A DNA stretch of 64,000 nucleotides from Neolewinella aurantiaca (GTDB taxonomy: Bacteria; Bacteroidota; Bacteroidia; Chitinophagales; Saprospiraceae), in assembly GCF_008014675.1 (NCBI RefSeq), contig NZ_VOXD01000007.1:62001-126000 (forward strand), read 5' to 3'. The notes beneath the pieces were generated by a model, which searched no databases, was not told where the DNA came from, and was given only the letters and a program-made list of their open reading frames with translations. Positions 1,591-61,290 of the stretch are shown here, piece by piece. Position 1 is the first letter of the stretch; every line of letters begins with the position of its first letter. Both the position numbers and the translations under genes were made by a program.

Positions 1591-1609
1591 TGCACCTGCG
1601 GCCGCGCCC
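1591..1609 (+). repeat. Dispersed GC motif (consensus copy)
   Basis: TGCACCTGCGGCCGCGCCC, located just upstream of the putative prmA -7 box (TATCTTCG, 1611-1618). Confidence 0.75.
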
Positions 1610-1633
1610 TTATCTTCGTGCAAATTTTCGACC

Positions 1634-2458
1634 ATGATCTTTCAGCAATATACCCTTGATAATGACCCTGCACTGAACGAAGTTCTGGTGGCTTTTCTCT
1701 CGGAGGCGGGGTTCGACTCTTTCCAGGAAACCGATGAGGGCCTGTTGGCTTTTGCTCCCGCCGAAGACCACGCCCGCTGGGTGCGGGAACTGGACGAACT
1801 CTCAGGCCAGTTCCCTTTCACTTATACCTCCCATCCGCTGGAGGATAAAAACTGGAATGAAGAATGGGAAAAGCAATTTCAGCCCCTGCAGATTGGTGAC
1901 CGGCTTTACATCCGAGCTGATTTTCATCCGCCTCACCCAAACATCGAACAGGAGCTCGTAATTACACCGAAGATGGCCTTCGGTACGGGCCATCACCCCA
2001 CCACGCACATGATGTGTGAGTTGATCTTCGAACAGGACCTGGCCGGGAAACGGGTTTTCGATTACGGCTCGGGTACCGGGGTGCTCGCCATCCTCGCCAA
2101 GCGTCTCGGCGCAGCCGAGGCCGACGCGGTGGATATTGAATCCTGGTCGGCTGAGAATACCCTGGAAAACGCCCGGAGGAACGGCGTTGAGATGGACCAG
2201 ATAATCCACGGAACCCTCGACGATGTACCCGCCGGAGAACCATATGATCTGATCCTGGCAAACATTAACAGAAATGTAATTTTAACCACCGCCGAAGCGT
2301 TGTACCAGCGACTTCGCCCCGGAGGAACAGTTTTGTTCAGCGGTATTCTCGACACCGACGAACATTTACTGGTCTCCAGCCTTTCCAGCCTTGGATTTGT
2401 CCATCAGGAAACCCGGCAGCGGGCGGATTGGCGAGCCTTCGTTTTTACCCGTAATTAA
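1634..2458 (+). CDS. prmA: Ribosomal protein L11 methyltransferase
   Basis: PrmA trimethylates lysines and the N-terminus of ribosomal protein L11 with S-adenosylmethionine. The 274-residue protein has the N-terminal substrate-recognition domain, the linker motif FGTGHHPTTHMM, the Rossmann SAM-binding motif FDYGSGTGVLAILAKRLGA, and the catalytic LANINRNVI motif. The frame is open further upstream, to 1544, but that stretch translates the dispersed GC motif; MIFQQYTLDN at 1634 is the natural start. The next gene begins 8 nt after the stop, so the two are very likely co-transcribed. Confidence 0.95.
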   Translation: MIFQQYTLDNDPALNEVLVAFLSEAGFDSFQETDEGLLAFAPAEDHARWVRELDELSGQFPFTYTSHPLEDKNWNEEWEKQFQPLQIGDRLYIRADFHPPHPNIEQELVITPKMAFGTGHHPTTHMMCELIFEQDLAGKRVFDYGSGTGVLAILAKRLGAAEADAVDIESWSAENTLENARRNGVEMDQIIHGTLDDVPAGEPYDLILANINRNVILTTAEALYQRLRPGGTVLFSGILDTDEHLLVSSLSSLGFVHQETRQRADWRAFVFTRN

Positions 2459-2466
2459 GAATTTAC

Positions 2467-5400
2467 ATGCGTTTACTATTCTTCCTTCTTACCGCTCTTT
2501 TGGTGTCCGGCCAGTCTTTCGCTCAGAAGCTGACCGATTTACCCCCGGATACCGATCCTGCTGTTTTTTCCGAATCGCTGGAAGAGTTCATGAACGCATC
2601 GGGAAATAAAACCGCGAAGGACGCTTACGCCAACTTCTCCGGTGTGTTTTTCGGGGGAGGCTTCACCGAGGAGCAGCAAAAACGAATTGCCAACACCTCT
2701 GTGTTGTTAGCGCAAAAACGCATCAGTTCGGCGACCGGCTTCAAATCTTATCTGGAGCTGCTCCCTTTCCTCGGGGGAACACCAGAAAAAGAAAACCCCG
2801 CTTTTGCCGGTTTTCACGATGGCCTTGACCTGTTGCTCAGGGACGAGAGTTCCCGTACCGGAGAAATCGTGAGGGCACTGCAAAACGCCTGGAGCTACCT
2901 TGCTCACCAACGACTCGATGCCAACCTCGGTGATGACGGCTGGCTTGTGGTGGGCGGAGCGCCCGTCTTTTCGTTTCAGGACGGGAACCTGATGATGAAA
3001 CTCGATACCGTGCAGCAGTTGGTCGGGATCGGCAAACGGGACACTATTTACATCGACGAAACAGAACTGCTCGTTAACCTCGGAGAAGGCAACGCGCGCG
3101 GATCAGGAGGTAGAACGGACTGGAAACGGCAGAACCTCCCCGAAGAGGTTTTTGCGATTCTGGTGAGTTACGACATCGAGTTGAACAGGACCCTCTACAA
3201 GTCCGATTCGGCTCAGTTGCAGTTTCCGGAATACTTTGATAACAAGATCCTTATCGGGAAATTTACCGATAAAGTAGAGCCCGGCGGCGCGCGGTCCGGC
3301 GGGGAGTACCCTCAGTTTATCTCCGACGACGGCTTTGTAGAAATTCAGAACGTCGGGGAAGGAATTGACCTGAAAGGAAACTTCGAACTTCGTGGAAATA
3401 CCGTTTATGCCATCGGAACGAGCGGCCGTAAAGCCCAGGTAACCCTTGGCGTTCAGGACGGTTCGGGAGATAAAAAGATAAAAGCTCAGGCCGACCGGTT
3501 TGCGATAAAGGCCGGCGAAACGATTGCCGGACAGGGCGTGAAAACCACGGTTTACTTTGGGGAGGATAGCCTTTATCACCCCAGTGTAACGCTACGGGTA
3601 CAGGTCGCTGAGCGGATCGCTCAGCTTTCCCGGTCGGAGTCGAGTGCCGACCGTAGCCCGTTCAACCACAGCCTCAACAATATGCAAATCTATGCGGAAC
3701 GCATGGATGTATACCTTGATCGGGACAGTGCCGTAGTTGGCCGGAAAACGGTTTCTTTCGAAGAAAAGCCCGACGTTGTTTTTGAAAGCAAAGACTTTTT
3801 CGACGAAGGCGATTACAACCGCCTGCGAGGTATCGCCGGCAGTAACCCGCTGGACGTAATCTATGCCTTCCGCAACAGCCCCGAGGGCGGTAACGACATC
3901 ATTGATGCCAATGTATTGGCCAAGAAGTTCAACCCCCGGATGAAAGCGGCCGACATTCAGCCGCTCTTGTTCGACCTGCAAACCAAAGGGTTTTTGCTGT
4001 ACGATTCGGAGTCGAAACTCATCGAGTTGCTGCCTAAAGTCGGGCACTACGTCAGAGCCAGCCGCGAAGAAATCGACTATGATAAACTCCGGCTGATCAG
4101 CAATACATCAAGCGTAAATGCTTACCTCGACCTGAAAAGCGGGGAGGTACGCATCGATGACGTGAAACCCATTGAGTTCAATCGCCAAAAGCAAATTGCA
4201 ATCAAGCCTCTGGGCAACCAGTTGACGGTGAAGGGCGATCGGAACTTCGACTTCGACGGCGATATATACGCCGGAGGTATGGTGTTTCAGGGTAAAGGAT
4301 TTCATTTTGAATATGAGCCCTACCGGGTGAAGCTTGACTCCGTCCGTTACTTCGACCTCTTTCTGCCGGTAGACGATACCTTCGGGGAAGGAATGAAACG
4401 TAAGAGTACCGGCAGCCGAATTGAGCACCTCAGCGGCTACCTGCTCATCGACGCACCAAAAAATAAATCGGGTACGGAGGACATCGCCTACTTCCCCTCC
4501 TTACAAACCCAGGCAAAAAGTTATATATACTACGACCGGGCTGATACATCGGCATCTTACAACCGCGAAGACTTCTACTTTGAGCTGGAACCTTTCAGCC
4601 TCAACGGAATGGACAGCCTGATCTCTACCGATGTGGAACTTGAAGGTAAGCTCTTCAGCGGAGGAATTTTTCCCGATATGGAAGAGTCGCTGACCATTCA
4701 GGAAGACGGGAGCCTTGGCTTCGTCACCCAAACTGCCGAAGGTGGCCAGGATGCTTACGGAAACCATGGCAAATACGAAGGAGAAGTTAGCCTGAGTAAC
4801 CGGGGTTTGGCGGGTAAAGGCCGTCTTACCTACCTGGAGGCAAACATCGACAGCGAAGACCTGAGTTTTCAGCTCGATCGTACCACCGCAACCTCAAAGA
4901 GTTTCGAACTGCAGGAAACAAGCACTTCGGGAAGGGAAATACCTCAGGTAAAAGGTACCGAAGTGAATATCGAGTTCAAACCCTACGCCGATTCTCTGAT
5001 CGTTAACTCTGAAGCCGGAGCACCGTTCGAGATGTTCAAAGCCGGAGCGCACGAATTTCAGGGAGGCCTCGTATTAACACCCGAAGCGCTGAAAGCAAAC
5101 GGTACCCTCAGCTGGGATGCTGCAGATATGAGCAGCCATGACCTGGACTTCAGCACCTTCGGTGCTCATGCTGATACGGCTAACGTTTCTATCAAGTCGT
5201 TGGCTGGGGATGATCGCCTGGCCCTCAAAACCACCAACGTAAAAGCAGACGTTGACTTTGAAACCCAGGTGGCTTCCTTCGAGAACAACTCTTCCGATTT
5301 GGCTACCGCACTGCCGTACAATGAGTTCAAAACCAGTATCGACCGCTTTGACTGGAACATGGCGGGCGGCAACGTTACTTTTCAGGCCAAACCCGGCAAA

Positions 5401-9073: not shown

Positions 9074-11656
9074 ATGAAGCTACGACTACCGTTCCTCTCC
9101 CTGCTCCTTACCTTTCTCTGCACCTGCGTCAGCGCCCAAACAACTGCTGATACTTTCGAAGATGGTGATCTGCTGAACCCGACCTGGACGGGAGACAATG
9201 CCAATTTTGTGGTTGCCGATGGCCGGTTACAACTGATGGCTCCCGACGCGGGAACATCAGAACTCGGGGTGGCAACACCCATCAATTACGACGCTCCAAC
9301 CACAGTATACGAGTTTCTGGTACAAATGGATTTTGCGCCCTCGGCCAGCAATTTCTCCACCGTTACGCTCATCGAAGCGCGGGCGTTGCCCGAGGTGCGG
9401 CAGGTGGAAATGAAATTTGGCGGTATTTCCGGCAGCGATGACCGGCTGGAGGTAAGTTTTGTGGTTGGCGGCACCGAAGTCGCTACTATGGAAGGAACTC
9501 TTGGTGCCCTCGGCTCTAATCCGGCAATTGCCCGTTTCCGTATGGAGCATGCGGGAAACACCTGGACGCTCTCGGCCGATTATACCGGTGGCACTAATTT
9601 TGTTCTTCAGGACCAGACCACGGTAGATATGGCCATCAGCCCCGATTCGCTGGCGCTTTCTGCCCGTTACACCGCCACCCGGTCTGACCTGATGAGCTGG
9701 GATGATCTGTTGGTCACCTCGGAAGTAGCAGTAGATGAAACCGCTCCCGTTCTCATCAGCAGCACCCTGACCAACCCCGATGAGATCACGCTGATATTTG
9801 ATGAAGTCATCGCGCAGACCCCGGCGGGATCACCCGCCAATTACAGCCTCTCGGCCACCGGCCTGAGTGTGAACAGTGTTTTGGTAGACGGAGCGACGGT
9901 TACGCTGAGCCTCTCGGACGAACTGCCCGACGGCGAAGATGTCACCCTTACGGTCAGCACGATCACGGACGAGTCCGGCAACATTCTGAGCGACCTCAGC
10001 CTCAGTTTTCGCTACGATATTACTGCAACGCCGACCTCCCGCAACGTCGTCATCAATGAATTTATGGCCGACCCCAACCCGGTAGTCGCCTTGCCCAATC
10101 AGGAATATCTGGAACTGTACAACCCGACGGATACAGTAGTGGACCTTACCGGCCTGGAAATTGCTAGTGGCGGCAGCCCGGTAACCCTGCCGGAAGGCAG
10201 CAGATTGGCCGCCCGGGGTTACGTCGTGATCACGGGAAATGAAGAGGCAGACGGCTTCCGCGCCCTCGGCGCAGCAGTGATTGAAGCCTCGCTGCCAACC
10301 CTGAGCAACGCCGGAGATGAAATTTCGGTAGGTTATCAGGGCCAGAATATTCAAACCATCAACTATACCGACGATTGGTATAACGATACTGAACGCGACG
10401 AAGGTGGTTACAGCATAGAGTTTATCGGAGAGGGCGCAGACGCAGGATGCAGTGCCAGTTGGAGGGCAAGTCTGGCCCTGGAGGGTGGTACTCCGGGAAA
10501 CGTGAACTCCGTTCTCGGCATGTCGTCCGACGTGACGGCCCCCGGCATTGCAGAAATCGAAGTCGGAGACTTCGGTATCACGCTCACCTTCGATGAGGCC
10601 ATCGACATTAGCGACTTTACCGTCGATTTGTTCAGCTTCAGTCCGGCCATTGAGTTTTTCCGGCCGGCGTCAATAAGCGATAATTCATTCTTCCTTTCCG
10701 CTGACCTGGAGGAGAACACAGTTTATACGCTTACCATCCTGCCCGACTTCATGGATTGCGCCGGCAATGCTCCCAGTGAGGCCATAGTGCTGACGGTCGC
10801 CATCCCAACCGTTCCCCTGCCGGGCGACGTGGTGATCAACGAAATCCTTTTCAACCCCGCTACCGGAGGCTCCGACTTCGTGGAGCTCTACAACTGTTCC
10901 GACAAGGTGTTCCAGATCGAAGGTTGGTTGATCACCAACCTGCTCTCGAGCAGCTCTACGGCGACGCAGGAGATCACCACTTCGCGGCTGTTTCTGCCGG
11001 GCGACTACCTCACCTTTACGCCCGACCGTGAAGACATCCTGGCGCGCTTTCAGGATGTGAACCCGGAGTTGCTCATCGAGCAACGCCTGCCCACCCTGAG
11101 CGACGATGAAGGAAACGTTACCATCGACGCGGGCATCGTCCGCCTGGATGCGTTCGATTACACCGAAGACTTTCACTCCGAGCTCCTGAGCCCCGACGAT
11201 GGCGTCAGCCTGGAGCGTCTGCGCCAGAAATCTACCACCCAGGACGGCAGCAACTGGTTCAGTGCCGCCTCAACCGAAGGCTTTGGTACCCCGACGCGCG
11301 AAAACTCTCAGGCCCGCTCCGGCCTGGAACCCGCAGGCGAAGAGACGTTCTCGATCGTCAACCCGACCTTCAGCCCCAACGGCGACAGCTTCGAAGATTT
11401 TCTGGAACTCAGCTACACCACTGATCGTACCGGTTTCCTGGCGCGGGTGCGCATCTTCGATGCGCAGGGCCGCCCGATCCGGACCCTCCGCCTGACCGAA
11501 CTCCTGGGGGGAACCGGAACCCTCCGCTGGGATGGCGACAACGACGAAGGCCAGAAAGCCAAAGCCGGTTTGTACGTACTCTTCGTGGAGCTCTTCAATC
11601 CGGACGGAGAGGTGCGGGAAGAGAAGTTGGTAGGGGTTTTGGCGGGGGAGCGGTAG
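9074..11656 (+). CDS. Secreted lamin-tail-domain protein with FlgD-like C-terminus
   Basis: This 860-residue exported protein has the signal peptide MKLRLPFLSLLLTFLCTCVS followed by AQ. After an N-terminal lectin/LamG-like sandwich there is an Ig-like region (DETAPVLISSTLTNPDEITL), then two lamin tail domains, one beginning NVVINEFMADPNP (about residue 322) with YLELYNPTDTVVDLTGLEI, the other GDVVINEILFNPATGG (about 582) with FVELYNCSDKVFQIEGW. The C-terminal module (FSPNGDSFEDFLELSY to AGLYVLFVELFNPDGEV) resembles FlgD Ig-like or gliding/T9SS-associated C-terminal domains. Extracellular adhesion or nuclease-associated roles are known for lamin-tail proteins, but the function here is unassigned. 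Its signal peptide is partly encoded by the dispersed GC motif (9119-9137). Confidence 0.85.
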   Translation: MKLRLPFLSLLLTFLCTCVSAQTTADTFEDGDLLNPTWTGDNANFVVADGRLQLMAPDAGTSELGVATPINYDAPTTVYEFLVQMDFAPSASNFSTVTLIEARALPEVRQVEMKFGGISGSDDRLEVSFVVGGTEVATMEGTLGALGSNPAIARFRMEHAGNTWTLSADYTGGTNFVLQDQTTVDMAISPDSLALSARYTATRSDLMSWDDLLVTSEVAVDETAPVLISSTLTNPDEITLIFDEVIAQTPAGSPANYSLSATGLSVNSVLVDGATVTLSLSDELPDGEDVTLTVSTITDESGNILSDLSLSFRYDITATPTSRNVVINEFMADPNPVVALPNQEYLELYNPTDTVVDLTGLEIASGGSPVTLPEGSRLAARGYVVITGNEEADGFRALGAAVIEASLPTLSNAGDEISVGYQGQNIQTINYTDDWYNDTERDEGGYSIEFIGEGADAGCSASWRASLALEGGTPGNVNSVLGMSSDVTAPGIAEIEVGDFGITLTFDEAIDISDFTVDLFSFSPAIEFFRPASISDNSFFLSADLEENTVYTLTILPDFMDCAGNAPSEAIVLTVAIPTVPLPGDVVINEILFNPATGGSDFVELYNCSDKVFQIEGWLITNLLSSSSTATQEITTSRLFLPGDYLTFTPDREDILARFQDVNPELLIEQRLPTLSDDEGNVTIDAGIVRLDAFDYTEDFHSELLSPDDGVSLERLRQKSTTQDGSNWFSAASTEGFGTPTRENSQARSGLEPAGEETFSIVNPTFSPNGDSFEDFLELSYTTDRTGFLARVRIFDAQGRPIRTLRLTELLGGTGTLRWDGDNDEGQKAKAGLYVLFVELFNPDGEVREEKLVGVLAGER
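9119..9137 (+). repeat. Dispersed GC motif inside a signal peptide
   Basis: TGCACCTGCGTCAGCGCCC encodes CTCVSA, the last residues before the predicted cleavage site. The same frame and position are used at 30160-30178. Confidence 0.7.
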
Positions 11657-14032: not shown

Positions 14033-14293
14033 AGTTTGTAGCCAATGAGATGACTTTACTTCCGTGCTCAGCAAATCTTGCAGGGTGGCAACAGCGTCAT
14101 ATCTCGTCATACATCTCGTCTCACCTTACCTGCCGGCGGCCTTCTTTCGCTGCGCGTCTTCTGCGGGGTAACAGGGCAAAGAAGCAACACCCTCGGGCTG
14201 TGTCTCCGGCCAAAGTCGCTTCGCAATGAAAATAGTCGAAAGTGTCGGTGGAGGAGTTTCACTCCGATTGAGCCCGCGCTACATCCCGTCTCA

Positions 14294-14981
14294 CCTTGCC
14301 TGCCGGCGGCCTTCTTTGACGGGGCAAAGAAGCAAACCCCTCAGGCTGTGTCCCCGGCTGCTCACTAATACGGTCACTGCTGGCCTAAAAAGCAAAAACT
14401 CGCCTCAAACTGATCCTTCGAAGTCTGGAACTGTCGGGAGTCGAAGCCCTTCGGAAATGCAGCAACTCAGTGTTGGCTCATACAACTTGCTTTTCTTAAC
14501 GGCCACCAGCAACCGCATTAGTAGCCGGGCCCAAGGCCGAAGTAGCTGCGCAATAAAAATAGTTGAAGACACCGGAGGAGGAGTTTTACACCGACAGAAC
14601 CCCTACGCGCCAGTTACGCGACCAGAGGTCGCTTATCCCTGCTGTTCACCAGAGGTGAAGGCGGCCGGACCAAAGCTTATACTTGATACTCCAACTTTCG
14701 TAATTGAAAGCAACGCACAGTACTCCGACATTCCGGCTTCGGCCTTGGCACCGGCAGTGGAATGCAGTTTTTGAAGCCGTTAAAAAATGGAAACTGTCTG
14801 AGCGTTCTCAAGGCATAGGACGCAGCAACCCAGATTTCAATGAACCGATGGGCTTAGAAGCAACCCAACCAACGCCGACGCGAGTTTTTCCATTTTAGGC
14901 TTCAAGAATTGGATTCCACGATCAGCCGGTGGCACAGCCTTGATTTTTTGGTTCGTTTTTTATCAAGAAAAAATGAACGGG
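14294..14981 (+). repeat. 688-bp direct repeat, copy 1 (block R plus hairpin A)
   Basis: It is repeated at 15060-15748 with a 766-bp period. The block contains the CTTCTTTG-ACGGGG-CAAAGAAG hairpin and, near its middle, a TTCACC/GGTGAA hairpin. Confidence 0.8.
14747..14981 (+). repeat. Hairpin element, copy A
   Basis: Its arms are about 48 bp and pair imperfectly (5' arm from GGCACCGGCAGTGGAA to ATGGAAAC; 3' arm from GTTTTTCCATTTTAGGCTTC to CAGCCGGTGGC), enclosing an 89-nt loop. A T-rich tail follows (CTTGATTTTTTGGTTC to ATCAAG and AAAAAATGAAC). Confidence 0.8.
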
Positions 14982-15059
14982 CAAAAGGGGAAGAACTTAG
15001 TCCTCAGGCACCGGAGGAAGAATTTTACTCCGATTGAACACACGTCACCGCTCGTCTAA

Positions 15060-15748
15060 CCTTGCCTGCCGGCGGCCTTCTTTGTCAGGGCAAAGAAGCA
15101 AACCCCTCAGGCTGTGTCCCCGGCTGATCACTAATACGGTCACTGCTGGCCTAAAAAGCAAAAACTCGCCTCAAACTGATCCTTCGAAGTCTGGAACTGT
15201 CGGGAGTCGAAGCCCTTCGGAAATGCAGCAACTCAGTGTTGGCTCATACAACTTGCTTTTCTTAACGGCCACCAGCAACCGCATTAGTGGCCGGGGCCAA
15301 GGCCGAAGTAGCTGCGCAATAAAAATAGTTGAAGACACCGGAGGAGGAGTTTTACACTGACAGAACCCCTACGCGCCAGTTACGAGATCAGAGGTCGCTC
15401 ATCCCTGCTGTTCACCAGAAGTGAAGGCGGCCGGACCAAAGATTTTCCTGAATGCTCTAAGCTCCGTAATTGAAAGCAAAGCACAGAGCTCCGACACTCC
15501 GGCTTCGGCCTTGGCACCGGCAGTGGAATCCGATTTTTGAAGCCGTTAAAAAATGGAAACTGTCTGATTGTCCTCAAGGCCTAGGACGCAGCTACCCAGA
15601 TTTCAACGAACCGATGGGTTTAGAAGCAACCCAACCAACGCCGCCGCGAGTTTTTCCATTTTAGGCTTCAAGAACTGGATTCCACGATCAGCCGGTGGCA
15701 CAGCCTTGATTTTTTGGTTCGTTTTTTATCAAGAAAAAAATGAACGGG
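15060..15748 (+). repeat. 688-bp direct repeat, copy 2 (block R plus hairpin B)
   Basis: Second copy of 14294-14981, diverged by scattered substitutions. A further partial copy of block R is at 18030-18106. Confidence 0.8.
15513..15748 (+). repeat. Hairpin element, copy B
   Basis: Loop closely related to copy A; one extra A in the tail makes it 236 bp. Confidence 0.8.
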
Positions 15749-15964
15749 CAAAACGGGAAGAAGCGCAGTCTTGGGGCATCGGTTGAGGAGTTCTATTCCG
15801 ATTGAGCCCGCGCTACATCCCGTCTCACCTTGCCTGCCGGCGGCCCTCAATGCCGAACTTTAACTTTTCAGGAGAGTCGGACCGGATCGGGATTCTAAAT
15901 ATTCGCTCAGCAATCAAAGTATAGAGTGCAGAACGCAGAGTTCAGTCCCTCCGGCTTCGGCCTT

Positions 15965-16199
15965 GGCACCGGCAGTGGAATCCGGTTTTTGAAGCCGTTA
16001 AAAAATGGAAACTGTCTGAGCGTTCCCGAAGCCCGGAAATCGGCGCCAAAGATTTCGACGGACCAACAAGCCAGGAAACAACCCGACCAACGCCGACGCG
16101 AGTTTTTCCATTTTAGGCTTCAACAATCGGATTCCACGATCAGCCGGTGGCGCAGCCTTGATTTTTTGGTTCGTTTTTTATCAAGAAAAAATGAACGGG
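15965..16199 (+). repeat. Hairpin element, copy C
   Basis: Arms 15965-16012 and 16102-16151, 89-nt loop. Starts the first 884-bp higher-order unit. Confidence 0.8.
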
Positions 16200-16398
16200 C
16201 AAAACGGGAGGGAACGTAGATTTTTAGTGGGGACATCATCTTTGCATTACCTCCCATCTTACCTTGTCTGCCGGCGGCCCTCAATGCCGAACTTTAACTT
16301 TTCAGGAGAGTCGGACCGGATCGAGATTCTAAATATTCGCTCAGCAATCAAAGTATAGAGTGCAGAGCGCAGAGTTCAGTCCCTCCGGCTTCGGCCTT

Positions 16399-16633
16399 GG
16401 CACCGGCAGTGGAATCCGGTTTTTGAAGCCGTTAAAAAATGGAAACTGTCTGAGCGTTCTCAAAGCCCAAAAATCAACATCAAAGATTTCGACGGACCAA
16501 CAAGCCAGGAAACAACCCGACCAACGCCGACGCGAGTTTTTCCATTTTAGGCTTCAACAATTGGATTCCACGATCAGCCGGTGGCACAGCCTTGATTTTT
16601 TGGTTCGTTTTTTATCAAGAAAAAATGAACGGG
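16399..16633 (+). repeat. Hairpin element, copy D
   Basis: 434 bp after copy C. In the variable loop segment its differences from C are all G to A or C to T. Confidence 0.8.
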
Positions 16634-16848
16634 TAAAACGGGAAGAAGCGCAGTCTTGGGGCACCGGTTGAGGAGTTCTATTCCGATTGAGCCCGCGCTA
16701 CATCCCGTCTCACCTTGCCTGCCGGCGGCCCTCATTGCCGAACTTCAGTTTTCAGGAGAGTCGGACCGGATCGGAATTCTGAATATTCGCTCAGCAATCA
16801 AAGTGTAGAGTGCAGAACGCAGAGTTCAGTCCCTACTGCTTCGGCCTT

Positions 16849-17083
16849 GGCACCGGCAGTGGAATCCGGTTTTTGAAGCCGTTAAAAAATGGAAACTGTC
16901 TGAGCGTTCCCGAAGCCCGGAAATCGGCGCCAAAGATTTTGACGGACCAACAAGCCAGGAAACAACCCGACCAACGCCGACGCGAGTTTTTCCATTTTAG
17001 GCTTCAAAAACTGGATTCCACGATCAGCCGGTGGCACAGCCTTGATTTTTTGGTTCGTTTTTTATCAAGAAAAAATGAACGGG
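16849..17083 (+). repeat. Hairpin element, copy E
   Basis: 450 bp after copy D; starts the second 884-bp higher-order unit and carries the C-type loop. Confidence 0.8.
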
Positions 17084-17282
17084 CAAAACGGGAGGGAACG
17101 TAGATTTTTAGTGGGGACATCATCTTTGCATTACCTCCCATCTTACCTTGTCTGCCGGCGGCCCTCAATGCCGAACTTTAACTTTTCAGGAGAGTCGGAC
17201 CGGATCGGGATTCTAAATATTCGCTCAGCAATCAAAGTATAGAGTGCAGAACGCAGAGTTCAGTCCTTCCGGCTTCGGCCTT

Positions 17283-17517
17283 GGCACCGGCAGTGGAATC
17301 CGGTTTTTGGAGCCGTTAAAAAATGGAAACTGTCTGAGCGTTCCCGAAGCCCAAAAATCAACATCAAAGATTTCGACGGACCAATAAGCCAGGAAACAAC
17401 CCGACCAACGCCGACGCGAGTTTTTCCATTTTAGGCTTCAACAATCGGATTCCACGATCAGCCGGTGGCGCAGCCTTGATTTTTTGGTTCGTTTTTTATC
17501 AAGAAAAAATGAACGGG
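17283..17517 (+). repeat. Hairpin element, copy F
   Basis: 434 bp after copy E. Its loop is intermediate between the C and D types. Confidence 0.8.
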
Positions 17518-17732
17518 CGAAACGGGAAGAAGCGCAGTCCTGGGGCATCGGTTGAGGAGTTCTATTCCGATTGAGCCCGCGCTACATCCCGTCTCACCTT
17601 TCCTGCCGGCAGCCCTCATTGACAAATTTCAGTTTTCAGGAGAGTCGGACCGGATCGAGATTCTAAATATTCGCTCAGCAATCAAAGTGTAGAGTGCAGA
17701 ACGCAGAGTTCAGTCCCTACTGTTTCGGCCTT

Positions 17733-17967
17733 AGCACCGGCAGTGGAATCCGGTTTTTGAAGCCGTTAAAAAATGGAAACTGTCTAAGCGTTCCCGAAGC
17801 CCGGAAATCGGCGCCAAAGATTTCGACGGACCAACAAGCCAGGAAACAACCCGACCAACGCCGACGCGAGTTTTTCCATTTTAGGCTTCAACAATTGGAT
17901 TCCACGATCAGCCGGTGGCACAGCCTTGATTTTTTGGTTCGTTTTTTATCAAGAAAAAATGAACGGG
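17733..17967 (+). repeat. Hairpin element, copy G
   Basis: 450 bp after copy F; the last copy before the right-hand border. A G to A change in the 5' arm creates TAG in the longest shared frame. Confidence 0.8.
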
Positions 17968-18323
17968 CAAAAGGGGAGGACTCAGTCCTTGGGCATCGGT
18001 GGAGGAGTTTCACTCCGATTGAACCTCGTACGTGCCAATTACGCAACCAGAGGTCGCTCATCCCCGCTATTCACCGGAGATGAAGGCGGCCGGACCATAG
18101 CTGAAACTGTTGCGCAAAGGAGAATAGCCGCCGGCAGGCATACAAGACGGGCTGTTAGCTTAGGCTTCTTTAGTGAGAAACCGATTTACTTACTAATGAT
18201 CGCTTCATTCTCCGCCGGACGAAAGAGCACTAAAACGCAGGTGTTGAATATTCCCACACACGCCTAAAAGGCAAGTAGTGATCAAGGAGCTTAAGTTGTT
18301 TGGAGCCAGGGCGGCCTGAAATC

Positions 18324-29683: not shown

Positions 29684-30220
29684 TTAAAACTGGAAAACCG
29701 CAAAGCCCTTCATCTGGCAGGTGGCAACGGTGGTAAGCATCGAAGTTGCTATTTCGACTTCAGGGAGCACCGTTTGGGTATCTACCTTTCTTCCTTTAAG
29801 CGATTGCCCGCAAACGGTGAGTTGAACTCCTGCCACCTTGAGCTCGCGGATCAGGTCGATGTTGGGGTTGTCGACGCCGAATTTCTCCTTGTAGGCGTCA
29901 TTGCTTAGTACAGAATAGGTGGCTCCGCCGTGGATGGCCAGCACAACGGTCATTTGGTCATTGAAACCGCCTCCTGCTTCGTGGAGGTTGAGCATTCTGG
30001 CAACGTTATGAAGGCCAGCGCTGTATTGATCTGGTGCTTCGCTGCCGGTTTTCACGTCTACCACTATTTTGTACTCAATGCTACTGTCTGGGCGGACAGT
30101 AGCTTCGGGGATGGCGTAGATGCCACCAAAACTCGGTACGACGGGATTTATTTTCCCCTGGGCGCGGCCGCAGGTGCAAACAAAGGTCAGGAGGAGCAGT
30201 GTTTGGAGTAGTCTTGTCAT
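29684..30220 (-). CDS. Exported DsrE-like protein
   Basis: The 178-residue protein has a signal peptide (MTRLLQTLLLLTFVCTCGRA before QGK) and a DsrE/DsrF-like domain: YKIVVDVKTGSEAPDQYSAGLHNVARMLNL, MTVVLAIHGGATYSVLSND, IDLIRELKVAGVQLTVCGQSLKGR. The single Cys in TVCGQS sits where DsrE-family proteins carry their persulfide-carrier cysteine. DsrE-like proteins handle sulfur in the cytoplasm, so the exported form is different and its substrate is unknown. The signal peptide end is encoded by the dispersed GC motif. Confidence 0.8.
   Translation of the reverse strand: MTRLLQTLLLLTFVCTCGRAQGKINPVVPSFGGIYAIPEATVRPDSSIEYKIVVDVKTGSEAPDQYSAGLHNVARMLNLHEAGGGFNDQMTVVLAIHGGATYSVLSNDAYKEKFGVDNPNIDLIRELKVAGVQLTVCGQSLKGRKVDTQTVLPEVEIATSMLTTVATCQMKGFAVFQF
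30160..30178 (-). repeat. Dispersed GC motif inside a signal peptide
   Basis: Gene-strand TGCACCTGCGGCCGCGCCC encodes CTCGRA just before the predicted cleavage of the DsrE-like protein. Confidence 0.75.
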
Positions 30221-53700: not shown

Positions 53701-53811
53701 GTGTGTATCACGAGATGCACGGATCCCCCTCTCCCCCGGCCCCTCTCCTCGGGAGAGGGGAGACGTGACAAGCGGCAAGTTCGTGATAGTAGTGCATCTC
53801 GTGATACACAC
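53701..53811. repeat. Nested palindrome 2 enclosing a REP-like hairpin
   Basis: Arms GTGTGTATCACGAGATGCAC (53701-53720) and its exact inverse (53792-53811). Inside is CCCCTCTCC-TC-GGGAGAGGGG (53740-53760). CAGCCTCCGG flanks both arms. Confidence 0.8.
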
Positions 53812-53881: not shown

Positions 53882-54685
53882 ATGATACGTTTTACCCTGG
53901 CTGCCGCGCTCTGTCTTGTGGCGGTTTTCACCATCAAGGCCCAACAGCTTCCCTCCAATCCTGACCCTGATAAATGCTACGTGCGTACTGTTACACCCGA
54001 TGTATACGAAGTTGAATACGAGGATGTACTGACCTACTCGCGGGAGGAAGCCATGAAGTATGCACACACTTTTCTGGAGATTGAGCTAACTCCGGAATAC
54101 AGTCAGTGGGAAACAACCACCTATGAAGGTGGTGAAAGTGACGACCCCAACGATTGTCAGGTGCTCTGCTACCGAACCTACCCCGCAACCTATGATACCA
54201 TCTACAAGCCCGCAGTTGATTCCGTAGGTAACCCGTTTTACAGGGAGATAGAACGCATGTTTCTGGTTGAGCGGGGAGGCCTGTCCAGCTACGAAGAGAT
54301 CGACTGTGAACTGACCAGCTCCAATATTTTGCCGGTACACTTTGACCTTGGCAGTGCACAGTTTTCGGATCCGGAAAATGCCAAACGCGTTTTGGATAAT
54401 CGGCTTTTCGGGTTACTGCGTGACCGGCCCAATATTCGCATAGAGATTGGCGCGCATACCGGTTCTCGTGGATCTGAATCCGGAAATCAGAGGCTTACTG
54501 AACGTCGCGCCAACTTAATCGCGAGTTATCTAATTTCCCGTGGCATCCATCGTGATCGTTTGGTCGCAAGGGGTTATGGAGAATCCCAATTGAAAAATGG
54601 GTGTGCCGACGGAGTGGATTGCTCGGATGATGAACATGAGGCAAATCGTCGGGTGGAGTTCAGGGTCCATAATATCTATTATTGA
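53882..54685 (+). CDS. OmpA-family outer-membrane/peptidoglycan-binding protein
   Basis: The 267-residue exported protein (signal peptide MIRFTLAAALCLVAVFTIKA before QQ) has a unique N-terminal half with cysteines (DKCYV, DCQVLCYRT) and a C-terminal OmpA domain: ILPVHFDLGSAQF, IRIEIGAHTGSRGSESGNQRL (peptidoglycan-binding Asp replaced by His in the usual GHTD), TERRANLIASYLISRGI, RLVARGYGESQ, and NRRVEFRV. It anchors to the cell wall by this domain. Its end overlaps the convergent acyltransferase by 26 bp. Confidence 0.88.
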   Translation: MIRFTLAAALCLVAVFTIKAQQLPSNPDPDKCYVRTVTPDVYEVEYEDVLTYSREEAMKYAHTFLEIELTPEYSQWETTTYEGGESDDPNDCQVLCYRTYPATYDTIYKPAVDSVGNPFYREIERMFLVERGGLSSYEEIDCELTSSNILPVHFDLGSAQFSDPENAKRVLDNRLFGLLRDRPNIRIEIGAHTGSRGSESGNQRLTERRANLIASYLISRGIHRDRLVARGYGESQLKNGCADGVDCSDDEHEANRRVEFRVHNIYY

Positions 54686-55904
54686 GTCCTTCCACCTCAG
54701 CCATCAGCCCTTTTCGTTCAGCATCCACCATTCGCTCTACCTTCCGGCGGCGGTACCAGTGCTGGAGGTTGTCCAACTGGCGGGCTGACCAGTTGACCGT
54801 CAGGAGCGCAACGACGAGCCAGATCTTTAGCGGCCAGGGCAGCAATAACAGTAGGATGGGGTAGAGGAGGAAGGTTCCTCCGGTTACGACAGCGAAGCGT
54901 ACGGGGCTGTAAAACTCAATGTGTTTTGGCTTGGAGCTGCCGATGTATTCAGCCAGAACCCAGAGTGGGATTTGCGGTAGTTGGAGCAAACCAGCCAGCA
55001 ATAAACGAAGCCAAATGGGACTTTGCTTCACCACCCGCCTTGCACCTGCGACCGCGCCCACATGAACCCCTTGCCGGTCCAGACGATTGAAAAAACGGGT
55101 CAGCGGGGCATCTTCTGCGGGGGTATTGGCGGCAATTTCCAGTTCGCGGTCCAGCTGCGCGCCGTCGTGCGTGATGCCGTGCACGAGGTCCGCATTGTGC
55201 CTGGCGCGGTCGAGCTCCAGCCGGGCTTCACCAATAGCTGCACGCTCCCCGTCGGGGAATTGCACGACCAACGGGCTCAGGCGCGAACGCAGGTGCGAAG
55301 TGAGGTTTTTGATGGCGGTTGCTTCGCTGCTACGGAACTCGTCCATAAACTCCGAAGCAAGGATCGGCTCCCCGAACCGGATCATCACCTGGTCGCGGAC
55401 CCGATCAGCGTGCGTGAAGTTACAGCCGACCGGCACGATGTAAACCTCCCGCAGGGTCGCGTCGCGCTGCATTGCCCCCAGGGCAAGGCGTGCCGTCCCT
55501 TTCCGCATCGGCCGCAACGCCTTCTCGTGAATGCACCGCCCCTCCGCCAGGTTCATGATGGCTTTGCCCTGGCTGAGTGCCCGGAAGCATGCCTCGAAGG
55601 TGCCGAAGTTGTTCTTCAGCTTTCCGTAACCGCCGTCTTGAATTCTGAAGACCGGCAGAATATGAACCGCCGAAAGTAAACCCTTATAAAAACCGTTTTT
55701 GAAGAGGTTGCCCCGCGCCAGAAACCAAAGCGTCCGCGGTTGAAAACAGGCCAGGATACAGGGTTCGATAAAAGCCGTCGGGTGGTTCGCCGCCAGCACC
55801 ACCGCCGCGTCTTTAGGGATGTTCTCCAAACCCGTCAGGTCGATATTGCGGTAATAATAGCGCAGTACATAGCGGGCTACGGGACGGACAAGTTGGTAGA
55901 TCAT
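54660..55904 (-). CDS. PlsC-like 1-acylglycerol-phosphate acyltransferase, multidomain
   Basis: The 414-residue protein begins MIYQLVRPVARYVLRYYYRN and carries a PlsC domain: VLAANHPTAFIEP (HxxxxxE, where D is usual), LWFLARGNLFKNGF, IMNLAEGRCIHEKALRPMRKGTARLALGAM, VYIVPVGCNFTH. The second half has helical regions and two membrane segments near the C-terminus (WLRLLLAGLLQLPQIPLWVL and FAVVTGGTFLLYPILLLLLPWPLKIWLVVALL). Frame extension to 56264 runs through the next gene and is rejected. Two dispersed motif copies lie inside. Confidence 0.85.
   Translation of the reverse strand: MIYQLVRPVARYVLRYYYRNIDLTGLENIPKDAAVVLAANHPTAFIEPCILACFQPRTLWFLARGNLFKNGFYKGLLSAVHILPVFRIQDGGYGKLKNNFGTFEACFRALSQGKAIMNLAEGRCIHEKALRPMRKGTARLALGAMQRDATLREVYIVPVGCNFTHADRVRDQVMIRFGEPILASEFMDEFRSSEATAIKNLTSHLRSRLSPLVVQFPDGERAAIGEARLELDRARHNADLVHGITHDGAQLDRELEIAANTPAEDAPLTRFFNRLDRQGVHVGAVAGARRVVKQSPIWLRLLLAGLLQLPQIPLWVLAEYIGSSKPKHIEFYSPVRFAVVTGGTFLLYPILLLLLPWPLKIWLVVALLTVNWSARQLDNLQHWYRRRKVERMVDAERKGLMAEVEGLNNRYYGP
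55041..55059 (+). repeat. Dispersed GC motif inside acyltransferase gene
   Basis: TGCACCTGCGACCGCGCCC; gene strand encodes GAVAGA. Confidence 0.7.
55280..55297 (-). repeat. Dispersed GC motif inside acyltransferase gene
   Basis: Gene-strand CGCACCTGCGTTCGCGCC encodes HLRSRL; opposite orientation to the copy 220 bp away. Confidence 0.65.
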
Positions 55905-56020: not shown

Positions 56021-57943
56021 TCACTTCGAACCTCTTCCGGCGGTAAGCAATTCCGCATCGTAGTTTCGTACCACCATGCTGTCCTGACACAAGTTCCAGA
56101 GGTATTGCTTTACAACATCGCCCTCCTGCAATCCGGGTAGGCTCAGGTTGAAACGGAGGTAGTCGTCTTCCGGCGTATCCATCGTCGGCGGTATCCTGAC
56201 CTGAACCCACTTCAGGGTCTCCGCTCCGCGGCGGTGTTCGGTTACAACGGAGGGGAATTTCCACTTGTCGTAACTGTCGCCGTAGTACGAAAAGGCAAGG
56301 CTGGTACCGAGCCAGATGGTTCCTGCTGCTTCTGTAGCCGTAACCTTGTGCTCCAGCAGATTGGTAAATTCCCGGCTGGATTTCGGCGCAACGCTGACGA
56401 GGGTGTCGGTTGTCAGCAGTTCAGTAGTGACGTATTCTCCCACGGGCATTTTCTCGTCGGTGTCCAGGTAAACCCGGTCTTTTTTGTCGAGCGAGGTCTT
56501 GCCGAATACCTCCCAGTAGTAGGTTCTGTTGGTGAAGTCCAGAGGAATGATCCTTTGGTTGTATTGCCAGTGCTGGAAGAGGTTCAGGAAAATGAACGGC
56601 AGAAGGAGTAAGGGAGCGAGGGACCGCAGGTGCAAAGAGCGCTTACTAGTGAAGCGGCCTGTATGGCCTGTACCACCTTCCACGTCTCCCCTCTCCCGAA
56701 GAGAGGGGCTGGGGGAGAGGGCCACGTTACCTCGCTCTGCACCTGCGTTCTCGCCCAAAACCCACGCAACAAAAGCCGCCAGCGGCAAAGCCAGTAAAGC
56801 GTAGCTCTGCGTAACCGGCCGGCTCCCGAAGGTGTTGCCGTACCACCAGATGTGCCAACTGAAGAGTATGTACAGATTGCCGATCAGGAAAATCACCACG
56901 GGAAGTATCCACGCTTTCGGCAAGCGAAATATACCAACGAAAGCCAATGTCATGATTGGCGTATACACCAGCCAACCGCGCCGGTAGCTGAAGAGTCCAT
57001 CCAGCAAATGTGGTTCCAGCCAGTCGAAACTCAGCCCTGCGTAACCATCCTGCCACCAGCTGCCCGTCCCGACTTTATAATAGATCAACTGGATCGAAAA
57101 GACAGCCAGGGCGGCTAAGAATATGGGCAGCGTGCGTTCGAAATTGCGCTTGAAGGTATCCCAATTCTTCAGACCGTAAAAGGCCGGGATCGCAAACACC
57201 ACAATCTCGGAACTACGCACCAGGCACATCAGACCGATCAGGAGGCCTAATAGTAAGTAGTGGGTAGCAGGTAGTGGGTAGGCGGACAGTGGAGGCGATG
57301 TAGACGTTGCGGACGTTACACCTATGGACGATTTCGTCATCACCAGTTTGCTGAAGTAATAAAGAAACACCGAGTACAGCGCAAACAAATATCCGTGCGT
57401 CATGTCCGGCTTTTCCACGATGTAGTAGAAGATGTTGGTGCCCAGCCCAACGGCAAGAAGCGTAATCCCCACCACTAAATCAGAAAAGAAAAGCGCTAAG
57501 AATCGCTTCAGGTAAAGCAGCCCGAGAAAGGCGAACAGCAGCCCCATCAGTACTACCATGAGCTGGTAGGGATAGCTCATTCCGTCGGCCGGCGCAATGC
57601 CCGTCGCCGAAACGATGCCGTGGGTCACCAAAAAAGCCGGCGTCCAGATGACCGACAAGCCGATGTTGTAGATCGGGAAGCGGCCGCCGTCTTCGGTAGG
57701 GTTGAGCTGGTAGATGCTGCTGCTGATGTCGTAATCTTCGAAGTGCTGCTCCGCAAAGGCGTAGTGCTCAATGTCACCGTAGATGAAGGCTCCGGGCAGG
57801 TAGGCGTAATAGCCGTAGCCATCCCAGGTTATTACGTTGGTCGTGCCCCGAAAGACTTCATTGCGAATCAGGGAAGTGGCCGCCATCACGAGGAAGACGA
57901 GCAGAAAAGCAAACCGGGAAATTCTGTTGGGAGATCTCAGCAC
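56021..57943 (-). CDS. Polytopic membrane protein, glycosyltransferase-like
   Basis: The protein (640 residues from GTG at 57943) has about eleven membrane helices, an acidic motif after the first helix (ITWDGYGYYAYLPG), and large periplasmic loops (FSWHIWWYGNTFGSRPVTQSY). This layout resembles GT39/GT83-type dolichyl- or undecaprenyl-phosphate sugar transferases, but the assignment is by pattern. The C-terminal 180 residues are soluble and strand-rich. The ORF contains repeat insertions: TACCCACTACC-type units (57247-57290, LPATHYL), a REP hairpin (56684-56728, LSPSPSLRERG) and two dispersed motifs. TACCTTGC lies 4 nt before the GTG; the ATG at 57970 precedes the promoter. Confidence 0.75.
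   Translation of the reverse strand: MLRSPNRISRFAFLLVFLVMAATSLIRNEVFRGTTNVITWDGYGYYAYLPGAFIYGDIEHYAFAEQHFEDYDISSSIYQLNPTEDGGRFPIYNIGLSVIWTPAFLVTHGIVSATGIAPADGMSYPYQLMVVLMGLLFAFLGLLYLKRFLALFFSDLVVGITLLAVGLGTNIFYYIVEKPDMTHGYLFALYSVFLYYFSKLVMTKSSIGVTSATSTSPPLSAYPLPATHYLLLGLLIGLMCLVRSSEIVVFAIPAFYGLKNWDTFKRNFERTLPIFLAALAVFSIQLIYYKVGTGSWWQDGYAGLSFDWLEPHLLDGLFSYRRGWLVYTPIMTLAFVGIFRLPKAWILPVVIFLIGNLYILFSWHIWWYGNTFGSRPVTQSYALLALPLAAFVAWVLGENAGAERGNVALSPSPSLRERGDVEGGTGHTGRFTSKRSLHLRSLAPLLLLPFIFLNLFQHWQYNQRIIPLDFTNRTYYWEVFGKTSLDKKDRVYLDTDEKMPVGEYVTTELLTTDTLVSVAPKSSREFTNLLEHKVTATEAAGTIWLGTSLAFSYYGDSYDKWKFPSVVTEHRRGAETLKWVQVRIPPTMDTPEDDYLRFNLSLPGLQEGDVVKQYLWNLCQDSMVVRNYDAELLTAGRGSK
56612..56634 (-). repeat. 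Dispersed GC motif, diverged, in CDS
   Basis: Gene-strand TGCACCTGCGGTCCCTCGC encodes HLRSLA; lies on one side of the in-frame REP hairpin. Confidence 0.55.
56684..56728. repeat. REP-like hairpin inserted in a coding region
   Basis: CCCCTCTCCCG-AAGAGAGGGG plus CTGGGGGAGAGG, the same element as 53724-53762. Gene strand reads ALSPSPSLRERG. Confidence 0.75.
56738..56756 (+). repeat. Dispersed GC motif in CDS
   Basis: TGCACCTGCGTTCTCGCCC; gene strand encodes GENAGA. It flanks the REP hairpin on the other side, inverted relative to 56612-56634. Confidence 0.65.
57247..57290 (-). repeat. In-frame TACCCACTACC microrepeat
   Basis: Gene strand reads CTACCCACTACCTGCTACCC and on, encoding YPLPATHYLLLG between two membrane helices. 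Confidence 0.6.
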
Positions 57944-59760: not shown

Positions 59761-59779
59761 GGGCGCGGCCGCGGGTGCA
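59761..59779 (-). repeat. Dispersed GC motif upstream of pyrR
   Basis: Minus-strand TGCACCCGCGGCCGCGCCC about 50 bp upstream of the -7 box. Confidence 0.75.
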
Positions 59780-59969
59780 GTGAAGGCTTAAGAGCATCGT
59801 TTCCCGGCCCGAAGAATATTGCCGTCTCAACCTGCTCTCCCCGGATAATCGACAGCGTAACCATCCGGGAGGCTGAAACACCGCTTACTCACCGCAAGGT
59901 CAGGCTTCTGATGCTGTTATGATCGTTACACCCGAGCTGATAGGGCCCGGACAGGCAATCTTTTTTTCC

Positions 59970-59977
59970 TACCTTAA
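59970..59977 (+). promoter_or_regulatory. -7 box 5 nt before Nudix start
   Basis: TACCTTAA-CCGGT-ATG. Confidence 0.5.
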
Positions 59978-59982
59978 CCGGT

Positions 59983-60519: not shown

Positions 60520-60554
60520 TCGAAATCCGGAAACGAGGCATCCCTGGTTTTAAT

Positions 60555-61178
60555 TTAGTTGCCGAGGGGCACAAGTACGCCGCCATTGATACCAATGTAG
60601 CGCTGCCGGATTTCGGAGTCGTCCAGGTCTGACTGATCGGTGAAGCTGCCATTGTAACGGCCTTCAACGAACAGTTTCAGCCCGATATCGATCGTGAGGC
60701 CGCCTACTGCGGTGAACTCGAGGCCACTGCGGTTGATACGGTCGGCATCGAAGTCCACATCCCGTTCGCCGTTGAGGTCGGTAACGGTTCCGGACACAGC
60801 GTAGGAGAAGGACGGCCCCGCACCAACGTAAAAACCGATCCCCTCAGGACGGCCGAAGTTCAGTTTTACCAGCGCACCGAGATCGACAAAGGAAACGGTA
60901 CGTTCGAAGGAAGCGATGGAGCCCAGGGAAGCATCGATGGAGTAGCCACGGTTAAGGTAGTTGAGTTCGGGCTGAATGCTGATGATGTCGGTACCGAGGG
61001 GAATGTCGAGGAAAATACCCAGCATCAGGTTGGATTCACCGTCGGTTTCTATTTCGGCATTGTCGAAATCAATGGAAGCGTCGGTAGCGTTGACGCCAGC
61101 GCGGAGCCCAAAATATTGAGCAGACAGGGGAGCGGCCAGAAAAAGAACCGCCAGGAGAGATAGGAATGATTTACGCAT
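60555..61178 (-). CDS. Outer-membrane beta-barrel protein
   Basis: The 207-residue protein has the signal peptide MRKSFLSLLAVLFLAAPLSA before QYFGLRAGVNATD. The rest is an eight-stranded barrel pattern of the porin family type common in Bacteroidota: GLRAGVNATDASIDF, IISIQPELNYLNRGYSI, VSFVDLGALVKLNF, IGFYVGAGPSFSYAVSG, LEFTAVGGLTIDIGLKLFVEGRYNGSF, ending IGINGGVLVPLGN. The usual terminal aromatic is absent. An upstream frame opening (61310, TTG) translates the dispersed motif and is rejected. Confidence 0.85.
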   Translation of the reverse strand: MRKSFLSLLAVLFLAAPLSAQYFGLRAGVNATDASIDFDNAEIETDGESNLMLGIFLDIPLGTDIISIQPELNYLNRGYSIDASLGSIASFERTVSFVDLGALVKLNFGRPEGIGFYVGAGPSFSYAVSGTVTDLNGERDVDFDADRINRSGLEFTAVGGLTIDIGLKLFVEGRYNGSFTDQSDLDDSEIRQRYIGINGGVLVPLGN

Positions 61179-61271
61179 GGATTTGCTTGATTTAAATGAT
61201 TGAATCATCCGTAAAACGTGAGCCATTTTACCCGTGTTCGACGCTGAAATGTTAAGTGTCAAACATCTCTT

Positions 61272-61290
61272 TGCACCTGCGGCCGCGCCC
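61272..61290 (+). repeat. Dispersed GC motif (consensus copy)
   Basis: TGCACCTGCGGCCGCGCCC after CATCTCTT, between the beta-barrel gene and kdsB. Confidence 0.75.

What the first reader, a model, noticed from the sequence alone, without database searches (positions are those of the whole stretch)
1591..61290. A ~19-bp GC-rich motif dispersed about 21 times in 64 kb, in both orientations
Reading both strands, TGCACCTGCGNNCGCGCCC (with small variants) occurs at 21 sites listed in the features, about one per 3 kb. Twelve are intergenic and nine lie inside genes, in all three reading frames, so the constraint is on DNA or RNA, not protein. At 1532, 11790, 36532, 46277, 47728 and 61272 its first bases fuse with a -7 box (TTTGCA or TTGCA), so transcription would start inside it. 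Such recurrence cannot be chance. It could be a protein-binding site, a mobile micro-repeat, or a conserved initially transcribed sequence.
Basis: seen in the sequence. Interest (0 to 1): 0.85.

Follow-up and report, generated by a model that had tools for sequence, protein, structure and literature searches.

The report
Genome-wide strand-aware self-DNA tag in Neolewinella
About every 3,000 bases the chromosome of this bacterium carries the same oriented DNA tag, which arises by base changes, comes in species dialects and very rarely repeats in the same direction within 1,000 bases; it looks like a label by which the bacteria recognise their own DNA, of a kind known from two other bacterial families.

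Summary
The motif is real. The 64-kb window holds 18 matches (chance 0.25); the 6-Mb genome holds 301 exact copies, 0 of the reversed pattern. A position matrix finds 409 sites in the 1.258 Mb read (21% of the genome), 1 per 3 kb. The unit is about 45 bp: flexible blocks TTGCTCC and AACCTT, then TGCACCTGCG-nnCG-CGCCC and an A-rich tail.

It is confined to one genus (Neolewinella, inferred from named hits). Members with few or no copies carry dialects of the same architecture.

It is not a mobile repeat: in-gene sites arise by substitution. It is not a promoter: 0 of 105 sites with TTTG have TAnnTTTG in register.

New rule: of 99 pairs under 1 kb, 2 are in the same direction (strand-permuted mean 49); other genomes with this dialect agree (3 of 50), five other dialects show it weakly (6 of 34).

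Best reading: an uptake-signal-like self-recognition sequence, spread by biased recombination, probably read one strand at a time. Function is inferred; no convincing type IV pilus ATPase was found in the genus.

The parts
1513..1534 (-). variant site with insertion and 6-nt loop; outward partner of 1591
   Evidence: read directly; missed by the ungapped matrix
1591..1609 (+). motif core, exact
   Evidence: 39.4 bits
7215..7233 (-). motif core, intergenic
   Evidence: 38.3 bits
9119..9137 (+). motif core near the start of gene 9074-11656 (signal-peptide-like region, by eye)
   Evidence: 42.2 bits
10432..10450 (-). weak site with GCATCC insertion, inside gene 9074-11656
   Evidence: 20.4 bits
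11790..11808 (+). motif core, intergenic
   Evidence: 28.6 bits
20920..20938 (+). motif core at the 3' end of helicase-like gene 20914-24336 (-)
   Evidence: 35.6 bits
21439..21457 (-). motif core inside the same gene
   Evidence: 34.7 bits
23543..23561 (+). weak site inside the same gene
   Evidence: 18.7 bits
26992..27010 (+). motif core, intergenic
   Evidence: 33.3 bits
30160..30178 (-). motif core, exact, near the start of DsrE-like gene 29684-30220; a site at the same place in relative G008
   Evidence: 38.3 bits
30331..30349 (+). longer-loop variant, outward partner of 30160; a site at the matching place in G008
   Evidence: 13.6 bits
36514..36532 (-). motif core, intergenic; no site in G008
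   Evidence: 34.6 bits
39528..39546 (+). motif core inside gene 39414-40607; a site at the orthologous codons in G005 (L184)
   Evidence: 24.7 bits
40636..40654 (-). motif core, exact, convergent intergenic
   Evidence: 30.4 bits
46258..46276 (-). site with GCATCC insertion, intergenic
   Evidence: 26.6 bits
47729..47747 (+). site with GCACCC insertion, intergenic
   Evidence: 23.8 bits
55041..55059 (+). motif core, exact, inside acyltransferase-like gene 54660-55904 (-)
   Evidence: 38.5 bits
55279..55297 (-). motif core inside the same gene; inward pair with 55041
   Evidence: 31.8 bits
56616..56634 (-). degenerate site inside gene 56021-57886 (-)
   Evidence: 21.7 bits
56738..56756 (+). motif core inside the same gene; outward pair with 56616
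   Evidence: 33.8 bits
59761..59779 (-). motif core, intergenic
   Evidence: 37.7 bits
61272..61290 (+). motif core, exact; called intergenic, but inside the longest TTG-start ORF 60555-61310
   Evidence: 32.5 bits

Best explanation
The motif is a self-DNA recognition tag that works like the uptake signal sequences of Pasteurellaceae and Neisseriaceae. A genus-specific recogniser binds it during DNA exchange (most simply natural transformation). DNA that carries it is taken up or recombined preferentially, so each new copy made by point mutation is spread by biased recombination until the chromosome is saturated. Because same-direction sites exclude each other over about 3 kb while opposite strands hardly see each other, the tag is probably read on one strand, or sets which strand or direction is processed. 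Shown: copy number, genus limits, dialects, origin by substitution, strand-specific spacing in this dialect, one site-free island with mobile-element genes. Inferred: the recogniser, DNA uptake as the step involved, biased recombination as the driver, and single-strand reading.
For: About 1 site per 3 kb, against 0.33 per shuffle of 464 kb. Exact copies in 18 of 20 other genus members (3 to 360 each) and 0 of 39 genomes of other genera; a shorter core occurs in 11 of 395 phylum genomes, more than twice only in the two genus members among them. G011, with 0 exact copies, has its own motif CAyTGCTACTTTGnnAGyCAaaaa, 38 sites in 100 kb against 1 in a shuffle; G001, G007, G009 and G014 have further dialects. 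Origin by substitution: of 20 ortholog alignments across sites 15 are gapless at the site, 11 of these against a relative without a site; no own-side surplus above 2 residues within 4 residues of the site. In hisD a site sits at the same codons in 20 of 21 genomes, not in G011, all rows equal in length there. 245 of 409 sites are wholly intergenic, in 20% of the DNA; the most codon-adapted fifth of genes has the fewest (0.062 per kb). The largest site-free stretch (22.7 kb) has ArdC, BRO, KilA-N, DDE-transposase and UPF0236 genes. Same-direction pairs under 1 kb: 2 of 99, permuted mean 49, minimum 38; HMM set 0 of 86; loci of other genomes 3 of 50. ComEC in 21 of 21 genus genomes, DprA in 20 of 21, the miss being 55% complete.
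Against: No uptake or transformation was measured. No genus member has a convincing PilB/PilT/T2SS ATPase: hits reach at most about 25 bits over a short stretch of long frames, a few just past the family cut-off. ComEC and DprA are widespread and prove nothing specific. In H. influenzae orientation of the signal does not affect uptake (PMC1939737, passages), so the strand rule is not a known property of uptake signals. In samples of five other dialects the counts under 1 kb are 6 direct, 11 outward, 17 inward; in G009 alone 4 of 12 are direct, near chance. The outward excess is unexplained. The least codon-typical fifth of genes has the most in-gene sites (0.283 per kb), which does not suggest scarcity in foreign genes. 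A cellular DNA-binding function under selection would predict much of the same.
Confidence: 0.55

Rival explanations
1. A cellular chromosome-maintenance site (nucleoid organisation, repair or recombination, in the manner of Chi) kept by selection at regular spacing on each strand.
For: Regular same-strand spacing (CV 0.59, against 0.88 with permuted strands) is what a strand-specific intracellular function would want; some sites are kept over long divergence.
Against: No bias to one chromosome strand (58 and 55 on a 300-kb stretch of one contig). About 32 bits over some 45 bp is far more than Chi-like sites of 5-8 bp (recalled). Dialect change within one genus and sites inside proteins look costly for a housekeeping function.
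Confidence: 0.27
2. A gene-transfer-agent or phage-like packaging signal that starts directional packaging of a few kb.
For: Same-direction exclusion on a 3-kb scale.
Against: Terminase family PF03237 not found in the own genome and in 19 of 20 other genus members; other terminase families were not tested. Models with directional coverage fit worse than strand-specific exclusion.
Confidence: 0.06
3. A mobile micro-repeat such as REP/RAYT, or solo ends of a MITE.
For: Small inverted repeat GCG-4-CGC in the core and frequent inverted pairs 60-300 bp apart.
Against: Origin by substitution without insertion. Y1 transposases occur in genomes with no exact copy (G001, G011) and were not found in G018, which has 277 copies.
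Confidence: 0.03
4. A promoter or conserved initially transcribed sequence.
For: 105 of 409 sites have TTTG at the expected place; in divergent gaps 56 sites point to the nearer gene start and 30 to the farther.
Against: 0 of these 105 have TAnnTTTG in register; orientation otherwise does not follow genes, and convergent gaps also carry sites (27 in 37 kb).
Confidence: 0.03

Closest known systems
DNA uptake sequence (DUS) of Neisseriaceae and its dialects
   Same: Thousands of dispersed copies per genome, dialects in related species that share a core, spacing at kb scale, under-represented in strain-specific insertions (PMC3630211 and PMC2397512, passages).
   Different: About 45 bp instead of 10-12; another phylum; no convincing pilus ATPase; sites of one direction exclude each other; close inverted pairs lie 60-300 bp apart, whereas DUS pairs are closely spaced terminators. 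PMC2397512 holds that many recent DUS came by recombination rather than point mutation; that was not tested here.
Uptake signal sequence (USS) of Pasteurellaceae
   Same: Motif with a strong core and weaker flanking blocks (recalled); in genes and between them, no orientation bias along the chromosome (PMC1939737, passages); relatively even distribution (PMC7811141, passages).
   Different: Orientation is reported not to matter for uptake in H. influenzae (PMC1939737). USS pairs within 100 bp are common there (230 pairs, PMC7811141, some in opposite directions); here 97 of 99 pairs under 1 kb are of opposite direction. Whether USS show the same rule I could not test.
REP elements with RAYT transposases
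   Same: Short, dispersed, partly palindromic, often in inverted pairs (recalled).
   Different: Arises by substitution, not by insertion; not tied to the presence of Y1 transposase genes.
Chi recombination sites
   Same: Directional, species-specific, used on both strands (recalled).
   Different: Far longer motif, no strand bias seen, strong intergenic preference.

Membership tests
DUS/USS uptake signal | very high copy number, dispersed, both strands without strand bias | tested here: met
DUS/USS uptake signal | new copies arise without transposition | tested here: met
   15 of 159 in-gene sites had alignable relatives, plus hisD in 21 genomes
DUS/USS uptake signal | related species carry dialects of one architecture | tested here: met
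   clear in G000, G001, G007, G009, G011, G014; mixed in G016; a few sites in 20 kb each of G012, G013, G015, G017, G020; matrix not resolved in G004, where pattern hits exceed a shuffle
DUS/USS uptake signal | scarce in recently acquired DNA | tested here: inconclusive
   one desert with mobile-element genes, but codon-atypical genes have more in-gene sites, not fewer
DUS/USS uptake signal | inner-membrane and cytoplasmic competence genes ComEC and DprA | tested here: met
   not specific to the genus
DUS/USS uptake signal | type IV pilus uptake machine with a minor-pilin receptor | tested here: not met
   PF00437 only in weak partial hits in the genus, strong in G035, G041, G046; secretin, pilins and receptor were not searched
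DUS/USS uptake signal | the sequence raises DNA uptake or transformation | not testable with these tools
   needs an experiment; not filed as a member for this reason and the row above
REP/RAYT | inserted by a Y1 transposase | tested here: not met
Bacteroidota promoter (-7 box TAnnTTTG) | TAnnTTTG in register with the motif | tested here: not met
   0 of 105
Chi | short oriented site (5-8 bp, recalled) | tested here: not met
   about 32 bits over 45 bp
Chi | bias to one replication strand | tested here: inconclusive
   58 and 55 on 300 kb of one contig; origin and terminus are unknown
Gene transfer agent / pac site | terminase-encoding cluster conserved in the carriers | tested here: inconclusive
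   PF03237 absent in the own genome and 19 of 20 others; other terminase families not tested

The most novel reading that the evidence does not exclude
A self-recognition code read on single-stranded DNA: each strand of the chromosome carries its own independently spaced set of small hairpin tags, so that an incoming single strand of either polarity is recognised as self, and the tag has spread and diversified into dialects by recombination bias in a phylum for which my searches found no such tag described.
Probability: 0.25. Interest if true: 0.92.

Novelty: new variant of a known kind. Interest (0 to 1): 0.82.

Why it matters
In the papers seen, uptake signals are described for two proteobacterial families; an independent, dialect-forming, genome-saturating tag in Bacteroidota would show that such molecular drive evolves repeatedly, and without the usual pilus ATPase. 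The strand-specific exclusion of about 3 kb is a quantitative rule that a mechanism must explain, and it can be tested at once on genomes with known uptake signals. It would also give a genetic handle, own-DNA transformation, in a group with few tools.

Tried and rejected
Mobile repeat: rejected by gapless orthologs. Promoter fusion: rejected by register and gene-orientation counts. Orientation-blind exclusion and directional-coverage models (territory on the 3' or the 5' side) fit worse than strand-specific exclusion (coarse grid, 6 simulations per setting). Stable hairpin: of 9 sites folded as DNA none was an outlier against shuffles (z from -2.1 to 0.5). Base-pair covariation: in 409 own sites positions 10 and 15 change together in 13 (12 complementary; 2 left only, 14 right only; Fisher 1.7e-15), but in 242 sites of other genomes only 1 does so, and the two neighbouring pairs show none; the hairpin is a lead, not a result. 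In G011 another pairing, TTTG with CAAA, is possible, its G-C pair in 21 of 38 sites. Matrices for G004 and G016 drifted to codon bias and were dropped. The first loop-length count doubled T-initial matches and was redone for G000 only. No gain or loss rate was measured: the one close syntenic stretch read (12.7 kb of G008) has counterparts for 2 of 4 window sites there, counting the 13.6-bit one.

A positive control (does the same-direction exclusion hold for known uptake signals?) could not be run: one search was not accepted. For G012, G013, G015, G017 and G020 the dialect reading rests on 20 kb each.

Literature: searches listed no report of such a motif in Neolewinella, Lewinella or Saprospiraceae; the library holds only open-licence PubMed Central papers and the lists were cut at 8-15 rows. 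I saw passages of PMC1939737, PMC7811141, PMC3630211, PMC2397512, PMC2346458, PMC5217627 and PMC7965970, and section 16 of the last; all other papers as listings only. That section reports own-DNA preference in Riemerella columbina, a member of Flavobacteriaceae, with only A/T-rich frequent words as candidate signals.
Full report
Observation. The window contains 18 matches to TGCACCTGCGNNCGCGCCC with up to 3 mismatches, against 0.25 in shuffles. The genome in which it lies (5,995,659 bases, 104 contigs) has 301 exact copies on both strands and none of the reversed pattern. I therefore take the genus to be Neolewinella; the genome itself is unnamed. Besides the window I read 1.194 Mb of it, 1.258 Mb in all. 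A position weight matrix trained on 464 kb separates sites from background: 167 at 14 bits or more, 0.33 per shuffle, 31 between 6 and 18 bits. In the 1.258 Mb there are 409 sites, 1 per 3.1 kb; by extrapolation about 1,950 per genome.

Anatomy. The conserved unit runs well beyond 19 bp. Upstream lie a TTGCTCC-like block starting about 17-22 bases before the core and an AACCTT-like block about 5-10 bases before it, both slightly variable in place; then C-Y-Y-TGCACCTGCG, two freer bases, CG-CGCCC, and an A-rich tail. Total information is about 32 bits, against about 12.6 needed to find 1,950 sites in both strands of 6 Mb (my arithmetic). Single-base insertions occur: TGCATCCTGCG, and loops of 5 or 6 between GCG and CGC in 31 of 343 pattern matches.

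Distribution. 18 of 20 other genus genomes have exact copies (3 to 360), and 0 of 39 genomes of other genera. In a 395-genome sample of the phylum the core GCACCYGCGNNCGCGCC occurs 813 times in the own genome, 31 times in G017, and once or twice in 9 others; the reversed control also occurs up to twice in a few genomes. The two genus members without exact copies were sampled. By unbiased word count G011 has a dispersed motif of its own, CAyTGCTACTTTGnnAGyCAaaaa (38 sites in 100 kb, 1 in a shuffle), which shares the frame TGCxxCTxxGnn with the own motif. G001 (TTTTACCTGCGCtCCGcCGCC, 25 sites in 200 kb), G007 (CACCcGCGCtCCGgCGCaaaa, 18 in 80 kb), G014 (GCACCtGCGGCAGCGCCc, 20 in 80 kb) and G009 (CCGCACCnGCGnCcCCGCCC, 35 in 80 kb) give further dialects, each with 0 in a shuffle; matrices from so few sites are rough. 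G016 is mixed. Samples of seven genomes of other genera (20 to 80 kb each) showed no such word; the smaller ones have little power.

Origin of sites. Of 159 in-gene sites, 15 had a relative alignable across the site at 40% identity or more, giving 20 alignments (up to three per site): 15 are gapless within 4 residues of the site; of the other five, four have 1 to 6 extra residues in the relative and two have 2 extra residues on the own side (one has both), and one of these has 3 further own residues a little upstream. In 11 of the 15 gapless cases the relative has no recognisable site (by eye; protein identity 42-81%); in 4 it has one. In hisD a site lies at the same codons in 20 of 21 genomes, scoring 14.1 to 42.7 bits with the own matrix; G011, which sits on a long branch at the midpoint root, lacks it; all rows have the same length there. 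The peptide at this place is nearly the same in the 20, so protein constraint helps to keep it. Sites are thus made by base substitution. In the one syntenic stretch read from a close relative (G008, 12.7 kb), the sites at window 30160 and 30331 have counterparts in place and direction although the DNA between has changed; 26992 lies in a segment absent there, and 36514 has no counterpart.

Placement. 245 sites are wholly intergenic, 159 inside genes and 5 across an edge, with 80% of the DNA called coding. Direction does not follow genes: in genes 75 same and 84 opposite; between co-directional genes 76 same and 59 opposite; in divergent gaps 56 point to the nearer start and 30 to the farther. 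Convergent gaps have 27 sites in 37 kb, co-directional 135 in 131 kb, divergent 86 in 76 kb. By codon adaptation, the most adapted fifth of genes has 0.062 in-gene sites per kb, the middle three 0.155-0.162 and the least adapted 0.283; counted with 300 bp on each side the fifths do not differ much (0.71-0.83 per gene). The largest site-free stretch, C12:23658-46343 of G000, was scanned in part: 10 ORFs gave ArdC, BRO, KilA-N, DDE-transposase and UPF0236 domains among others. Genes were called by a simple codon model of my own.

The strand rule. Among pairs of sites less than 1 kb apart, 2 are in the same direction, 76 point outward and 21 inward. Permuting strands over the same positions gives a mean of 49 same-direction pairs, minimum 38 in 300 permutations. 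A gapped HMM built from the same sites gives 0 direct, 69 outward, 17 inward. At 2-4 kb the mix is near random (112 direct, 56 outward, 68 inward). Gaps between same-strand sites average 5,954 bases with CV 0.59, and 16 of 391 are below 2 kb (permuted mean 85). Of the simple placement models tried, exclusion within each strand over about 3 kb fits best; blind and directional-territory models fit worse; the best one does not explain the excess of outward pairs below 300 bp (44 seen, 13 predicted; inward 7 seen, 13 predicted). In 107 loci around exact matches in other genomes (776 kb, a few unrelated records among them; none of their sites identical to an own one) the counts below 1 kb are 3 direct, 38 outward, 9 inward. 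In samples of five other dialects (137 sites) they are 6 direct, 11 outward, 17 inward; G009 alone has 4 direct of 12. So the rule is firm for this dialect, weak or open for the others.

Mechanism. Dispersed saturation, dialects and birth by substitution, some of it inside proteins, are marks of an uptake-type recognition sequence spread by biased recombination. The strand rule adds that each strand is served separately, which fits a process acting on one strand or in one direction. ComEC is present in 21 of 21 genus genomes and DprA in 20 of 21, but no convincing pilus ATPase was found, so the outer step would have to be different. The receptor is unknown and was not searched for. I therefore say that it works like an uptake signal, not that it is one.

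Limits. 21% of the genome was read; thresholds are my own choices; the positive control on known uptake signals was not possible. The hairpin idea rests mainly on one covarying pair in one genome and is not supported by folding energies.

Noticed in passing
window 14110-18108: Array of long direct repeats (one family of 7 copies of 300 nt, spaced mostly 434-452 bp) inside the 9-kb stretch of the window without sites.
   Followed up: no
window ~53728-53765 and ~56682-56720: Another short dispersed repeat, two copies in opposite direction in the window, with many hits in G005, G008 and G010; a purine/pyrimidine-rich inverted repeat lies beside site 56738.
   Followed up: no
G000:C12:23658-46343 (L260, L261): Motif-free island with ArdC, BRO, KilA-N, DDE-transposase and UPF0236 genes (ORFs of L260 only).
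   Followed up: partly
G001 sample (L165-L174): Word counts that look like a tandem repeat of TGTGTGGATG.
   Followed up: no
G000:C2:33454 (in the ComEC-family gene, 31887-33978): The competence gene itself carries a site on the minus strand.
   Followed up: no
genus genomes: 1 to 7 Y1 transposase-like matches per genome in 20 of 21 genus members, none in G018.
   Followed up: partly
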